Shown here piece by piece: positions 4,840 to 62,474 of a DNA stretch of 64,000 bases (its first letter is position 1; each line of letters opens with the position of its first letter). The notes under the pieces are model-generated. The model was given only the letters and a program-made list of their open reading frames with translations. It was not told the origin of the DNA and did not search any database. The translations under genes were made by a program, and so were the position numbers. The stretch is from Subtercola boreus (lineage in GTDB: Bacteria > Actinomycetota > Actinomycetes > Actinomycetales > Microbacteriaceae): contig NZ_NBXD01000024.1 of NCBI RefSeq assembly GCF_003399645.1, forward strand, positions 124,001 through 188,000, read 5' to 3'.

Positions 4840-5508
4840 ATGGCGACAGACTCCGGCGGCGCGGCCGCACGACCCGTCGCGACGTGTTCGCGGGGGCGAG
4901 CGGGGCTGCGGCTGCGGGTGGGGGTACGGCTGCGGCTCACGCTCTCGGCCCTGTCGCTGGCCGCGCTGGCGGTCGGAGTCATCGGATGCTCGCCCGCCGA
5001 GGTGTCGCCCACGGGCATCCCGACCCCCACCGACCAGGCGAATTCGGAGTGGGGTTCGTATGGCAACAGGGACGACGCCTGCTCGGCGGTGGCGGGCGAT
5101 CTGCTGACACTCGCCCTCGTTCCGAAGAACCTCGCCCTCGCCGACCCGGGCAGCGGCGTGAACGACATCGACGACGTCATCGTCGCTGCGGGAACCGCCG
5201 CGCCCCCGTCAGTCGCGCCGAACTACCAGCAGCTCTCGGCCCTCGTGCGCTCCTACGGCGTGCAACTGGCCGCCTGGAGCGCGGCCACAGCACCCAGCCC
5301 GACGCCCACGGTGACGCAGACCCCGTCGCTGACCCTGTCGCCCACGCCGAGCCCGGCGTCGACGCCGACCAGTCCCGCCTCCGCCTCCCCCTCCCCCTCT
5401 GCCTCTGCCTCGCCGACGTCCGCTCCCGACCGCCCCACCTTCGACGACACTCCGTACACCGCCCGTCTCGACGGCATCAAAACCTGGCTCTCCACCACCT
5501 GCGGCTGA
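4840..5508 (+). CDS. Putative lipoprotein with Ser/Pro/Thr-rich segment
   Basis: 222-aa protein not assigned to a family. A hydrophobic segment (about residues 33-49) ends in a lipobox-like V-I-G-C with Cys50. The N-region before it is long and Arg-rich, so translation may start further downstream. The mature part has a short globular region, then a low-complexity stretch of TPSPTPSPAS type repeats at about 150-195, and a short conserved-looking end with a final Cys. Likely membrane-anchored and surface exposed. It is immediately followed by the left copy of the direct repeat that brackets hicAB. Confidence 0.6.
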   Translation: MATDSGGAAARPVATCSRGRAGLRLRVGVRLRLTLSALSLAALAVGVIGCSPAEVSPTGIPTPTDQANSEWGSYGNRDDACSAVAGDLLTLALVPKNLALADPGSGVNDIDDVIVAAGTAAPPSVAPNYQQLSALVRSYGVQLAAWSAATAPSPTPTVTQTPSLTLSPTPSPASTPTSPASASPSPSASASPTSAPDRPTFDDTPYTARLDGIKTWLSTTCG

Positions 5509-5513
5509 CCGCA

Positions 5514-5547
5514 CAGCGGAAGCGCAGGGAACGTGCAGACGCCTCCG
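5514..5547. repeat. Left copy of a 34-bp direct repeat flanking hicAB
   Basis: Begins CAGCGGAAGCGCAGGGAACG and ends GCCTCCG. It matches 6210-6243 at 31 of 34 positions in the same orientation. It ends on the base next to the hicB stop codon and starts 5 bp after the lipoprotein stop. It may be an insertion or attachment-site footprint of the hicAB cassette. Confidence 0.8.
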
Positions 5548-5937
5548 TCAGGCGCTCAGCGGCTGGTTGACGATCTGCGAAACGCGACCCGGTGACACAT
5601 GGAGCAGGCCAGCGATGTCGCGAACGGAATACCCGGCCGCCGTGAGTTCACGCGCCCGCTCGCTCGTCTCGGCCTGGAGCCGCTTGACCCGTGCATCGTT
5701 GGCCCGTCGCTCGGCGCCCAGTTCGGCCGCCACTTTCACCACCGCGGGCACCTTCTCGTAGCTGTACTCGATCTCGAGGGTCGCCTCGTTGCTGATGTCG
5801 AGCACGAGTGCGATCGCCTCACGAACGCTGTGGTCGAGTGAGACCAGGCTCCGGGCGAAGGTGTGCGCACCGGGTAGGTTCGTGACGTCAGCGACCCACG
5901 TGTCGCCGTCCAGACCGATTTCGACACGGTAGATCAT
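5548..5937 (-). CDS. hicB: HicB-type antitoxin with C-terminal DNA-binding domain
   Basis: 129 aa. The N-terminal part (residues 1 to about 55; IYRVEIGLDGDTWVADVTNL, then HTFARSLVSLDHSVREAI) has the HicB degenerate RNase H-like pattern. The C-terminal part (about 95-125; AAGYSVRDIAGLLHVSPGRV) is a helix-turn-helix. In this family HicB neutralises the HicA mRNA interferase and represses its own operon. The ATG overlaps the hicA stop by 4 nt, so the pair is translationally coupled. The gene ends exactly at the left flanking direct repeat. Confidence 0.85.
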   Translation of the reverse strand: MIYRVEIGLDGDTWVADVTNLPGAHTFARSLVSLDHSVREAIALVLDISNEATLEIEYSYEKVPAVVKVAAELGAERRANDARVKRLQAETSERARELTAAGYSVRDIAGLLHVSPGRVSQIVNQPLSA

Positions 5938-6143
5938 GACAGCCAGTCCTTTCCGAATATGGGCTCGAGATCCCGTTCAATGGATCGCTGAGTGCCTCGG
6001 GGCACGTCTCCCGAATGTTGGGGCACAACAGTCTGAGCCATCAGCCCGTCTCCGGTTGCTCGGTACAGTCGGTGCGACCCCCGTTGCCTGACCATCTGGC
6101 CACCGAGCCGTTCGATTCGTCGACCAATCTCCCGGGCCTTCAT
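5934..6143 (-). CDS. hicA: HicA-type toxin (mRNA interferase)
   Basis: 69 aa, normal size for HicA. It has the small dsRNA-binding-like fold pattern: KAREIGRRIERLGGQMVRQRG followed by Ser23-His24, where the GSH histidine is the expected catalytic residue, and VVPQHSGDVPRGTQRSIERD near the C-terminus. Family role: ribosome-independent cleavage of mRNA, held in check by HicB. It is first in the operon, toxin before antitoxin, as usual for hicAB. No Shine-Dalgarno is visible in the 8 bases before the ATG, consistent with a leaderless message. Confidence 0.88.
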   Translation of the reverse strand: MKAREIGRRIERLGGQMVRQRGSHRLYRATGDGLMAQTVVPQHSGDVPRGTQRSIERDLEPIFGKDWLS

Positions 6144-6191
6144 ACCGTACAGTTTAGTGACTAAACACGCAAGTGTCTAGCGACTAAACAC
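6144..6191 (-). promoter_or_regulatory. hicAB promoter with two operator-like palindromes
   Basis: On the minus strand TAGACA (6179-6174) and TAAACT (6156-6151) are separated by 17 bp, a good -35/-10 pair. The -10 ends 7 nt before the hicA ATG, so transcription would start at or next to the start codon (leaderless). A perfect palindrome with 7-bp arms, GTTTAGTGACTAAAC (6152-6166), covers the -10. A second, imperfect one (6173-6191, GTGTCTAG-CGA-CTAAACAC) covers the -35. Both share the half site ACTAAAC and are good candidates for HicB autorepression. Confidence 0.7.
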
Positions 6192-6209
6192 CCCCTCCTT
6201 CGGTATGTT

Positions 6210-6243
6210 CAGCAGAAGCGCAGGGAACGCGCAGACACCTCCG
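6210..6243. repeat. Right copy of the 34-bp direct repeat flanking hicAB
   Basis: Begins CAGCAGAAGCGCAGGGAACG and ends ACCTCCG. It is 31/34 identical to 5514-5547 and in the same orientation. It lies just upstream of the hicAB promoter region and 73 bp before the small membrane peptide gene. Together the two copies enclose hicAB plus its operators and nothing else. Confidence 0.8.
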
Positions 6244-6316: not shown

Positions 6317-6454
6317 GTGTCGCACCTGCTTGACGACGCCATCGCAGGCGGCCTTGTCGTGACCTCCGTCTGGACGGTCGGATCGGTGGCGCTGGCGCTG
6401 CTCCTCGGCCGCGTCGTGCGGGCCCGCGAGACGTACGACCTGCGCGACCGCTGA
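6317..6454 (+). CDS. Small single-pass membrane peptide (45 aa), function unknown
   Basis: GTG start with a well placed GAAGGA ribosome site (6305-6310, 6-nt spacer). The 45-residue product begins MSHLLDDAIAGG, continues with one hydrophobic helix (about residues 10-33, ending ALALLLGRVV), and has a charged C-terminus RARETYDLRDR. Composition and the ribosome site argue for a real gene. It does not match a family known to me. It lies next to the right hicAB flanking repeat; whether it belongs with the toxin cassette or with the ancestral locus is unclear. Confidence 0.6.
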   Translation: MSHLLDDAIAGGLVVTSVWTVGSVALALLLGRVVRARETYDLRDR

Positions 6455-6610
6455 CATCCACTCCGCCGTGAAGCGCGAGCCCCGCTCGAGCCCGGATGTG
6501 GGAGAACGTGCAGCGGCAAACACTTCTACCCGGGGCGACCGGGCCCTACGCTGGGTACCGACCCGAGCGATGCCGCTCGGCGCACGCGACACGGAAAGAG
6601 CAGGGAAGCT

Positions 6611-6856
6611 ATGACCGACCAAGGCACCTACAAAGCAGAGCTCATCGGGCCGGGGGTCATCGGCAACAATGAGGTCGTGGAGCTCACATTCGTCGACGGC
6701 GCCTACCAGGATCTCGTCGAGCTCACCTTCGAGGCCGCAGGCACCACCTCGGTGCGAACCTGGGCCCTCGGCGAGGTCGGCGAAGACACCCTCGAACCGA
6801 TCCCCTACAACTTTCTCGGCGAAGTCGACCAGACCCCGCCCAACGTCGAGAACTGA
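6611..6856 (+). CDS. Hypothetical acidic 81-aa protein
   Basis: 81 aa with a Shine-Dalgarno (CAGGGAAGCT) before the ATG. The product is acidic, lacks a signal peptide or membrane helix, and looks like a small beta-rich cytosolic protein: YKAELIGPGVIGNNEVVELT, then ELTFEAAGTTSVRTWALGEV. No family was recognised. It is convergent with the aldose epimerase gene. The 156 bp before it, after the small membrane peptide, hold its presumed promoter but no clear boxes. Confidence 0.65.
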   Translation: MTDQGTYKAELIGPGVIGNNEVVELTFVDGAYQDLVELTFEAAGTTSVRTWALGEVGEDTLEPIPYNFLGEVDQTPPNVEN

Positions 6857-59489: not shown

Positions 59490-61314
59490 GCGGGGCTCCC
59501 GTCGCGACGCGGCCCGGGCCGCGGTGGTGGTGGAGCGTGACGGTTCGCGGCTCGACGGGTGCGTCGCCGTCATCGGTGCCATCGGTTTGCACCACGTCTG
59601 CGCGGGCGCCGCGGGGACGCTCGATCACCAGCTCCAGGTGCTCGCCGACCAGGTTCTCGATCATCCCGGAGCCCCACTCGACCACCACGATCGAGTTGGC
59701 GAAGTCGATGTCGAGGTCGTCGAGCTCGGCCGCACTGCCGAGCCGGTAGGCGTCGACGTGCACGAGCGGAACGCCCGTGGAGAGAGTCGGATGCGTGCGC
59801 GCCAGCACGAAGGTCGGGCTGGTGACCGAGCCACGCACCCCCAGCCCCTCACCGAGGCCGCGGGTGAAGGTGGTCTTGCCCGCTCCGAGCTCACCCGTCA
59901 GCACCAGCACCGACCCCGCACCCAGCCGCTCGGCGAACGCGACGCCGAAGGCGTGCATCGCTTCCGGATCGGCGATCACCCACGACTCGCCGCCCGCAGC
60001 CGCCGCCGCAGCCGCCGCCGCCGCCGCGCCATCGTCACCGGGCGCATCCGTCACATACTGCCGAACGACGCGCGGGCCCACCCGGGCCACGATCTCGTCG
60101 CCGATGGTCTGCGCCCAGCCGGCCCACTCCTCCGCCGTCGGAACGGAATCACCCGCGGTACCCGCACCCGCATTCGCGCTCGGCGCCTCGCCGAACACGA
60201 TCACCTCGTCGCCGACGTTCACGGCGGCATCGCCCACGTCGATCACGATCTGGTCCATCGCGACGCGACCCGCCACAGGGTACCGCGTGCCGGCGATCCA
60301 CACCTGCCCCTTGCCGTTCGACGCCCGCGGAATGCCGTCGGCATACCCGAGCGGAACGAGCGCGAGCGTCGTCGGCGCCTCCGTTCGGTAGTCGAACCCG
60401 TACGACACTCCCTGCCCGGCCGGCACGCGCTTCACCGACACCACCGGCGCCGCCAGGGTCATCACCGCACGCAACCCGAGCTCCTCAGCCGTCTCATCGT
60501 CGAACGGCGACACACCGTAGGCCGCGATTCCAAAGCGCACGAAGTTGAAGCGGGCCTCCGGCATCCGGATGCCCGCAGAACTCGCGGCCAGGTGCAGCCT
60601 CTGCAACCGTGCTCCGAGGGATTCCGCGACAGCTACTGCGGCGCGGAACTTCTCCAGCGCGTCGCTGTCGTCCGCCGGCGAGGCGTCGGCCAGGTGCGAC
60701 CACACCGCATACAGCTCGAGCGCACCCTCCTCGTCGAGCGCCATCGCCCGGCGAACGAGGGCGGGCCACTGCTCAGGCGTCGCACCGTTGCGGTGCAGCC
60801 CGGTGTCGATCTTGAGGTGCACGCGCGTGAGCGCGGGCAGCGCGGTTGGCGCTCCGGAGGGCTCCGCGTCGTCGGGGGGATCGCCGGCAGAGTCGCTGGC
60901 GGCGCCGTCAGCCGCCGCACGCGCGCGCTCGACGAGCTTCGCCCGCGCCTGGGCGATCCGCTCCAGCTGCCACTCGGCCGACACGCCGATGTCGATCTCC
61001 TCGGACACAGCCCCGTCGAAGTCAGCGTTCGGGGCGTGCATCCACGCGAAGATCGGCACGGTGAACCCGGCGGCACGGAGTTCGAGTGCGGCGGGGATGT
61101 CGAGGACGGCGAGCCAGGTCGCCCCCGCTTCGAGCGCCGCCGCGGCGAGCTGGATCATTCCGTGCCCGTAGGCGTCGGCCTTCACGGCGAGCATGATCTC
61201 CGACGGCTCCGCGTGCGCCGCCAGCACGCGCACATTGTGGCGGAACGCATCGAGGTTGACGCGAGCAACCCGTTCGGGTGCCGCCCCGCTCACGCCCATT
61301 GCTTCGTCGCTCAC
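59482..61314 (-). CDS. Alanine racemase fused to tRNA threonylcarbamoyladenosine ATPase TsaE
   Basis: 610 aa. Residues 10-422 are a complete alanine racemase: PLP lysine in MLAVKADAYGHG (Lys45), substrate Arg region HLKIDTGLHRNG, catalytic Tyr in GQGVSYGFDYRT (Tyr305), AMDQIVIDVG near 352. An Ala/Gly/Pro-rich insert lies at 132-160. An alanine-rich linker (about 428-441) leads to TsaE (445-575) with Walker A GELGAGKTTFTRGL (474-487), TSPTFVLARTHPT, HVDAYRLG and VVVEWG. D-alanine synthesis and tRNA t6A assembly are thus joined in one chain. A second, separate alr lies just upstream. GTG start, 4-nt overlap. Confidence 0.93.
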   Translation of the reverse strand: MSDEAMGVSGAAPERVARVNLDAFRHNVRVLAAHAEPSEIMLAVKADAYGHGMIQLAAAALEAGATWLAVLDIPAALELRAAGFTVPIFAWMHAPNADFDGAVSEEIDIGVSAEWQLERIAQARAKLVERARAAADGAASDSAGDPPDDAEPSGAPTALPALTRVHLKIDTGLHRNGATPEQWPALVRRAMALDEEGALELYAVWSHLADASPADDSDALEKFRAAVAVAESLGARLQRLHLAASSAGIRMPEARFNFVRFGIAAYGVSPFDDETAEELGLRAVMTLAAPVVSVKRVPAGQGVSYGFDYRTEAPTTLALVPLGYADGIPRASNGKGQVWIAGTRYPVAGRVAMDQIVIDVGDAAVNVGDEVIVFGEAPSANAGAGTAGDSVPTAEEWAGWAQTIGDEIVARVGPRVVRQYVTDAPGDDGAAAAAAAAAAAGGESWVIADPEAMHAFGVAFAERLGAGSVLVLTGELGAGKTTFTRGLGEGLGVRGSVTSPTFVLARTHPTLSTGVPLVHVDAYRLGSAAELDDLDIDFANSIVVVEWGSGMIENLVGEHLELVIERPRGARADVVQTDGTDDGDAPVEPRTVTLHHHRGPGRVATGAPRG

Positions 61315-62474
61315 GAGACGTACCGCCGCTCGATCCGGGCGCCGATGCGCGTCACGATCTCGTAGTTGATCGTCTCCGCAGCCTCAGCCCAGTCCTCCGC
61401 CGACGGATACCCGTCCTGCGGATCGCCGAACAGCACCACCCTGTCCCCCACCGCAGCCTCCGCATCGTGCACGTCGGCAACGAACTGGTCCATCGCGATG
61501 CGTCCAGAGACGCGGTGGATCTCGCCATTGATCCAGACCGGTGCGCGGTTCGACCCGAGCCGCGGAATCCCGTCGGCATACCCCAGCGCCACCAGCGCGA
61601 GCGTCGACTCCGTCGCTGTCCGATAGGTGTATCCGTACGAGACACCACTGTCGACGGGCACCCGCTTCACCGAGATGACCCGCCCTTCGACGCGCATCGC
61701 CGGCCGCAACCCGAGCTCTGCCGATGTCTGGTCATCGAACGGCGAGAGCCCGTACATGCCGATGCCGAGCCGGATCATCGACAGCCTCGTCTCGGGCAGC
61801 CTGAGCGCTGCCGCCGTCGAAGCCAGGTGGATGATCGGGGGCTCGAGCTGCGCAACCCGGGCCAGCTCGACCCCGGCGAGCAGCCGCTCGAGCTGCGCAC
61901 GGTCTTCTTCGTCGTTCGTGTTCGAAAGGTGGCTGAACAGGCCCACCACGGTGAGCTGCCCGGCGCGCTGCAGTTCCGCCGCGCGTGCGAAGAACGCGGG
62001 CCAGAGGCTCTGTTCGGCGCCGTTCCGGCCCAGCCCGGTGTCGAGCTTGAGGTGCACCCGGGCCGGTTGCTGCGCGGCCCCGCCCTCTCCGGCTTCCCGC
62101 AGGCCCGCCGCCACCCGCAGCCCCGCCGCCGCCACCGCGTCGAGCTGCGCGACCGAGCTCACCCCCACATCGATCGAGTGGGCGACAGCACGGTCGAACG
62201 ACGCCTGCGGCGAGTGCAGCCACGCCAGCACCGGAACCGACAGTCCGGCGTCGCGAAGCGCCACCGCCTCATCGACATCGGCCACGCCGAGCCACGTCGC
62301 ACCCGCCTCCACCGCCGCGCGGGCGACCTCCACCGCTCCATGCCCATAGGCGTTGGCCTTCACCACCGCCATTACCTCGGCACCGCCGACCAGCGCCGCC
62401 ACCGTTCGCACGTTGTGCCGGATTGCCCCGAGGTCGACGGAGGCCAGCCGCAGGGGCTCCTCAGACGCGCTCAT
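61311..62474 (-). CDS. alr: Alanine racemase
   Basis: 387 aa, full-length PLP enzyme that makes D-alanine for peptidoglycan. PLP lysine Lys39 in VMAVVKANAYGHG, HLKLDTGLGRNG, MIRLGIGMYGLSPF, catalytic Tyr in SGVSYGYTYRT, GRIAMDQFVADV; C-terminal EDWAEAAETINYEIVTRIGA. It resembles the Alr half of the next gene throughout, suggesting tandem duplication. ATG overlaps the acpS stop by 4 nt. Confidence 0.96.
   Translation of the reverse strand: MSASEEPLRLASVDLGAIRHNVRTVAALVGGAEVMAVVKANAYGHGAVEVARAAVEAGATWLGVADVDEAVALRDAGLSVPVLAWLHSPQASFDRAVAHSIDVGVSSVAQLDAVAAAGLRVAAGLREAGEGGAAQQPARVHLKLDTGLGRNGAEQSLWPAFFARAAELQRAGQLTVVGLFSHLSNTNDEEDRAQLERLLAGVELARVAQLEPPIIHLASTAAALRLPETRLSMIRLGIGMYGLSPFDDQTSAELGLRPAMRVEGRVISVKRVPVDSGVSYGYTYRTATESTLALVALGYADGIPRLGSNRAPVWINGEIHRVSGRIAMDQFVADVHDAEAAVGDRVVLFGDPQDGYPSAEDWAEAAETINYEIVTRIGARIERRYVS

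What the first reader, a model, noticed from the sequence alone, without database searches (positions are those of the whole stretch)
5514..6243. hicAB cassette exactly bracketed by 34-bp direct repeats
Two copies of a 34-bp sequence (5514-5547 and 6210-6243), same orientation, differ at only 3 positions. They enclose hicB, hicA and the operator region, and nothing else; the left one abuts the hicB stop codon. This is what a precise insertion with a long target duplication, or a site-specifically recombined cassette, would leave. Neither repeat is inside a recognised gene. It could be a mobile toxin-antitoxin unit without its own recombinase, moved in trans or by homologous recombination between the repeats.
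Basis: seen in the sequence. Interest (0 to 1): 0.75.

Follow-up and report, generated by a model that had tools for sequence, protein, structure and literature searches.

The report
Toxin-antitoxin insertion with 34-bp scar
A small toxin-antitoxin gene pair appears to have been inserted between two genes in one species of this genus, with a 34-base piece of DNA, probably local, now standing on both sides of it; it looks like a one-off repair-type scar rather than a dedicated mobile cassette.

Summary
Two direct copies of a 34-mer (5514-5547, 6210-6243; 31/34 identical) enclose hicB, hicA and operator-like repeats (5548-6209). Four relatives of the same genus (G001, G002, G003, G007) keep both neighbouring genes with no hicAB between them. 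The repeat's 27-base core occurs twice in its own genome and in none of 397 other family genomes at up to 3 mismatches. It partly resembles the relatives' intergenic sequence, and the right copy lies near the native distance from the next gene in two sister species (80 versus 74 nt), so the duplicated bases are probably, not certainly, local. The nearest hicAB (G003) lies about 1.4 kb away without such repeats; it is more diverged at silent sites than three flanking genes, which suggests separate acquisition. No terminal inverted repeats, attC motifs, dif likeness or tRNA were found; recombinases were not searched for outside the insert. The genome encodes Ku and LigD. Best reading: illegitimate, NHEJ-like capture of a minimal hicAB fragment with duplication or copying of 34 bp. 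Rare precise loss by slippage remains possible. A mobile unit moved in trans is not supported.

The parts
5514..5547 (+). left copy of the 34-bp direct repeat, filling most of the gap between the upstream gene's stop and the hicB stop
5548..5937 (-). hicB antitoxin, 129 aa, C-terminal helix-turn-helix
   Evidence: phrog_8245 HicB-like antitoxin 4.1e-31; Pfam HTH matches only, below the curated cut-offs
5934..6143 (-). hicA toxin, 69 aa
   Evidence: Pfam PF07927 HicA_toxin 4.7e-11; phrog_353 toxin 1.2e-13
6152..6191 (.). two operator-like repeats (6152-6168, 6175-6191) upstream of hicA; similar TTAG..CTAA sites lie upstream of hicA in several other family loci
   Evidence: operator role inferred
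6210..6243 (+). right copy of the 34-bp direct repeat; its CAGAC ends 80 nt before the downstream gene, against 74 in G002 and G003
4843..5508 (+). upstream neighbour, coding frame (start not determined) conserved in the four empty-site relatives; 'lipoprotein' is my reading, no Pfam or NCBIfam hit
6317..6454 (+). downstream neighbour, 45-aa small protein, present in the four empty-site relatives

Best explanation
After the window's lineage split from its known congeners, a fragment of about 662 bp carrying just hicBA and its operators was joined into the gap between two conserved genes by non-homologous (illegitimate) repair of a break. A staggered or resected end was filled in, or local sequence was copied at the junction, so that 34 bp of the pre-existing intergenic sequence now stands on both sides. 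The toxin-antitoxin pair then favoured its own retention. Shown: no hicAB at the orthologous site in four congeners; the repeat's core is not found elsewhere in the family genomes searched; the genome encodes Ku and LigD. Inferred: that the insert was gained here rather than lost in the relatives, that break repair made the duplication, that the fragment came from outside, and that the pair is active.
For: No hicAB between the two neighbours in 4 of 4 congeners that keep both. The 27-base core is in 1 of 398 family genomes, the own one. Of 8 repeat-versus-empty-site alignments, four are matched by few of 500 shuffles: left/G002 2, left/G003 4, right/G001 1, right/G003 9; in G003 the block is GCGCAGGG..CGTGCAGAC. 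Its CAGAC ends 74 nt before the next gene in G002 and G003, 80 nt in the window's right copy. Ku and a LigD with primase-polymerase, phosphoesterase and ligase domains lie side by side on one contig. Insert G+C is 62.2% against a mean of 68.0%, in the lowest 3.6% of 4514 overlapping 662-bp windows. hicAB of window and G003 agree at 31 of 88 fourfold sites, three flanking genes at 181 of 325, Fisher p 7e-4. In Streptomyces, NHEJ scars carry inserts of 30 bp to 18.8 kb, two of them (42 and 83 bp) from nearby sequence (PMC5869714, passages and one section read).
Against: The other four alignments do not stand out (57, 60, 60 and 140 of 500 shuffles as good). G002 and G003 are close sisters here (93% identical), so they count nearly once. 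The G001 match of the right copy is gapped and lies at another place: CAGAC ends 25 and 111 nt before the gene in G001, and G007 has none. So local origin of the 34-mer is suggestive only. Fill-in in PMC5869714 was 1 to 4 nt, far less than 34 bp. I see no microhomology at the junctions. Without the 696-bp unit the window's gap is 112 nt against 171, 171, 157 and 138, so a further deletion on the left must be added. Two hicAB units within about 1.4 kb of each other's sites in two species is more than random joining predicts, unless the neighbourhood is a hot spot.
Confidence: 0.55

Rival explanations
1. Stepwise ordinary rearrangement: hicAB lay nearby, as in G003; a tandem duplication of hicAB plus the two neighbouring genes up to the 34-mer was followed by two deletions, leaving 34-mer, hicAB, 34-mer.
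For: G003 has the same minimal hicAB in the same orientation just beyond the two neighbouring genes. The outcome has the observed order.
Against: Needs three events. hicAB is more diverged at silent sites than three flanking genes (31 of 88 versus 181 of 325), which argues against simple shared descent. G002, 93% identical to G003 here, has no hicAB in the 6.5 kb compared; its only HicB match is 29% identical and on another contig.
Confidence: 0.17
2. Insertion by a transposase or other integrase acting in trans, with a 34-bp target-site duplication.
For: Exact borders and direct repeats of local-looking sequence.
Against: No terminal inverted repeats (scores 4, 4 and 6; 995, 995 and 241 of 1000 shuffles as good). 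One HicB match and no further copy of the repeat in the own genome. 17 other hicB loci show no flanking repeat above score 12, against 25 here. 34 bp would be an unusually long duplication (recalled). A search for transposases in the genome was not run.
Confidence: 0.1
3. attL/attR of a decayed prophage or integrative element of which only hicAB is left.
For: All 21 phage records with a relative of this HicB are Mycobacterium phages. In phage Redi hicA begins about 0.6 kb from the integrase gene.
Against: No tRNA in the window; hicBA fill the insert, leaving no room for an integrase; phage HicB 36-39% identical in the 20 listed rows; no close relative in viral contigs (a search for close relatives only). 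The 27-base core is absent from 397 other family genomes; phage records were not searched for it.
Confidence: 0.08
4. Site-specific cassette of integron or Xer/dif-module type.
For: Toxin-antitoxin genes are common in dif modules of Acinetobacter plasmids (PMC13141974, abstract).
Against: No attC core motifs (motifs recalled). Only two copies in the genome.
Confidence: 0.03

Closest known systems
HicAB type II toxin-antitoxin systems (HicA_toxin PF07927; HicB-like antitoxin phrog_8245)
   Same: HicA and HicB-like proteins in overlapping genes with operator-like repeats upstream
   Different: This HicB matches no Pfam HicB model at E 0.001; the pair stands between 34-bp direct repeats
NHEJ-associated insertions at double-strand breaks (Streptomyces, PMC5869714, passages and section 5)
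   Same: Actinobacterial genome with Ku and LigD; inserted DNA at a junction; copies of nearby sequence reported (42 and 83 bp)
   Different: Reported fill-in is 1-4 nt; here a 34-bp direct duplication brackets a whole gene pair, and no break was observed
Deletion between 38-bp direct repeats in Mycobacterium smegmatis (PMC3519483, passages)
   Same: Direct repeats of like length flanking an insert, which there is precisely lost without need of RecA or NHEJ
   Different: Engineered repeats there; here 31/34 identical, and loss was not tested
Acinetobacter dif modules carrying toxin-antitoxin genes (PMC13141974, abstract)
   Same: Small gene unit between short sites
   Different: The 34-mer is not dif-like and was found around no other unit

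Membership tests
HicAB toxin-antitoxin | HicA toxin domain with adjacent HicB-like antitoxin | tested here: met
   PF07927 4.7e-11, over its cut-off; phrog_8245 4.1e-31
HicAB toxin-antitoxin | toxicity of HicA, neutralised by HicB | not testable with these tools
   needs an expression assay
Non-homologous end-joining insertion scar | Ku and LigD in the genome | tested here: met
Non-homologous end-joining insertion scar | orthologous site without the insert in relatives | tested here: met
   4 congeners with both neighbours; none of the same species
Non-homologous end-joining insertion scar | duplicated bases are native local sequence | tested here: inconclusive
   4 of 8 alignments with at most 9 of 500 shuffles as good, 4 of 8 with 57-140; spacing agrees in G002 and G003, not in G001 and G007
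Non-homologous end-joining insertion scar | dependence of the event on Ku/LigD | not testable with these tools
   past event
Transposon, IS or MITE | terminal inverted repeats | tested here: not met
Integron cassette | attC core motifs at the borders | tested here: not met
   (motifs recalled)
dif module | dif-like border sites | tested here: not met
Prophage or integrative element remnant | integrase gene or remnant inside the borders, or tRNA attachment site | tested here: inconclusive
   ORF list shows only hicBA and overlapping frames between the copies and no tRNA in the window; no recombinase search was run, and attachment sites need not be tRNAs
Mobile cassette with its own border repeat | same border repeat around other insertions | tested here: not met

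The most novel reading that the evidence does not exclude
This neighbourhood is a recurrent landing site for bare hicAB units (window and G003 gained them separately, about 1.4 kb apart in the shared gene order), and the 34-bp repeats make the window's copy a reversible insertion that can be precisely lost by slippage: a recombinase-free way for toxin-antitoxin units to come and go.
Probability: 0.12. Interest if true: 0.5.

Novelty: new member of a known kind. Interest (0 to 1): 0.28.

Why it matters
Toxin-antitoxin pairs are patchy between close relatives, but the physical route by which a bare pair enters a chromosome is rarely visible. Here the borders, the site without the pair in four relatives and the repeated bases can all be read, so the route can be examined. 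If it is a repair scar, it supports capture of toxin-antitoxin units without any mobile element in actinobacteria that carry Ku and LigD.

Tried and rejected
Dispersed repeat: not supported. In one search a 22-base core gave one 3-mismatch hit each in G003, G006 and G009, and the reversed control pattern one hit in G006. Plasmids: no HicB match; the DNA gave one 73-bp match, in the upstream gene. Viral contigs: 139 pattern stretches, none a relative. Genome contigs by HicB: 237 pattern stretches, none a relative; by the repeat: no exact match. Both tools may leave out records near the own genome. Terminal inverted repeats, dyad (680 and 965 of 1000 shuffles as good) and attC: not found. dif: not found. 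Solved structures: one weak match to an oxidoreductase. NCBIfam: only sub-cut-off sigma-factor matches for HicB, none for HicA. Literature: (listings only) showed no title or abstract start describing this arrangement; one search returned no paper; some searches gave listings. Papers opened: PMC6449649 and PMC13141974 (outline with abstract), PMC5790767 and PMC3519483 (passages), PMC5869714 (passages and one section).

Limits of my own tests. One search used 18 of the 30 hicB loci fetched (window and G003 among them), with 12 mononucleotide shuffles each, of one side only. L057, L058, L060 and L065-L073 were dropped before the count: an internal stop, a contig start, or a weaker match than those kept. 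Four of the 17 others slightly exceeded their own shuffles (L050 10 versus 9, L059 11 versus 10, L062 11 versus 10, L064 10 versus 9). In one search my query for the small downstream gene was in the wrong frame and gave nothing; its conservation rests. The silent-site test used three flanking genes (membrane, 81-aa, epimerase), not the two others at hand. Recombinases and transposases outside the insert were not searched for.

Full report
Observation. They enclose hicB (5548-5937, minus), hicA (5934-6143, minus; HicA_toxin 4.7e-11) and operator-like repeats at 6152-6191. HicB is a HicB-like antitoxin by phrog_8245 (4.1e-31), although Pfam gives only sub-threshold HTH matches. For the 27-base core, no shuffle of the window gave a match (0 of 100).

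Uniqueness. At up to 3 mismatches the 27-base core occurs twice in the own genome, both here, and in 1 of 398 family genomes, the own one. A 22-base core at up to 3 mismatches gave three more hits in 12 genus genomes, each with 3 mismatches, and the reversed control one. A 23-position form had no exact match in genome contigs. In 464 kb of the own genome 11 direct repeat pairs 150-4000 bp apart were listed, so such pairs are not rare as such; I did not classify the others.

Sites without the insert. A search of 12 genus genomes, the own included, and loci fetched from the 11 others showed both neighbours in G001, G002, G003 and G007. Between the two genes lie 157, 171, 171 and 138 nt respectively, against 808 nt in the window, or 112 without the 696-bp repeat unit. 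The other seven loci align only from about window 6547 or further right, apart from one 41-bp match in L037, so they say nothing about this gap. No strain of the window's own species was available, and loss in the four relatives instead of gain here is not formally excluded.

Origin of the 34-mer. None of the 11 relatives' loci holds it at up to 11 mismatches; there were two places with 12 mismatches, both in G001, one of them in the orthologous gap. Local alignment to the four gap regions gave, as shuffles at least as good of 500: left copy 140 (G001), 2 (G002), 4 (G003), 60 (G007); right copy 1 (G001, gapped, at another place), 60 (G002), 9 (G003), 57 (G007, outside the gap). The shared CAGAC ends 74 nt before the next gene in G002 and G003 and 80 nt in the window's right copy; in G001 it ends at 111 and 25 nt, and G007 has none. 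I read the 34-mer as native intergenic sequence with moderate confidence. The left side is about 65 nt shorter than in G002 and G003 (32 versus 97 nt from stop to end of CAGAC), so a deletion or copying at the left junction is likely.

Related hicAB. Of 398 family genomes, 78 have a match to this HicB at E up to 0.001, most of them weak. The closest, G003 (73% identity), sits beyond the two neighbouring genes, about 1.4 kb from the gap, beside what I read as a hydrolase remnant (no family search made), in the same orientation and equally minimal. It has no flanking repeat above its shuffles (12 versus 12). Among the 17 loci other than the window's, the best flanking score was 12, against 25 here. 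At fourfold sites the two hicAB agree in 31 of 88, three flanking genes in 181 of 325 (Fisher p 7e-4; membrane and epimerase genes alone 151 of 283, p 0.003). Composition alone would give 0.29 for hicAB and 0.39 for the membrane and epimerase genes. This favours separate acquisition over a local jump, without proving it. The two repeat copies differ at 3 of 34 sites (95% interval 2-24%), whereas the orthologous gaps hardly align with the window's; so the duplication is probably younger than the species splits, barring gene conversion.

Mechanism. I found no terminal inverted repeats, dyad or attC motifs, no dif likeness and no tRNA; hicBA fill the insert. Recombinases elsewhere were not searched for. 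The genome has Ku and, side by side with it, a LigD with primase-polymerase, phosphoesterase and ligase domains. In Streptomyces, NHEJ scars carry inserts from 30 bp to 18.8 kb, including 42- and 83-bp pieces from nearby, but fill-in of only 1-4 nt (PMC5869714, passages and section 5). I therefore favour illegitimate capture with local duplication or copying; this last step is inference. As to the future of the insert, engineered 38-bp direct repeats in M. smegmatis gave precise deletions at about 6e-6, not requiring RecA or NHEJ (PMC3519483, passages), so slow precise loss is plausible here without a dedicated recombinase.

Verdict. A real, well-bounded insertion scar, apparently specific to this lineage, around an otherwise ordinary HicAB pair. 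The specialised-cassette reading is not supported by anything found here.

Noticed in passing
L035:2977-3890 (G003) and the left side of window 4029: The DNA just left of the membrane-protein gene differs between window, G001, G002 and G003; in G003 it holds hicAB beside what looks like a hydrolase remnant, 75% identical to a stretch of G001. It looks like a rearrangement hot spot.
   Followed up: partly
window 6485-6530: A stretch upstream of the 81-aa gene at 6611 (around GGATGTGGGAGAACGTGCAG) is conserved in G001, G002, G003 and G007, perhaps a regulatory element.
   Followed up: no
own genome C24:37547-37830 (L081): Two 100-bp direct repeats 184 bp apart, start to start.
   Followed up: no
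window 60325-60822 and 61560-62057: Two direct repeat pairs at the same spacing of 1235 bp, which suggests paralogous tandem genes.
   Followed up: no
L100 (Mycobacterium phage Redi): A distant hicAB lies near the integrase and immunity repressor genes in this phage; relatives of the HicB occur in 21 Mycobacterium phage records.
   Followed up: partly
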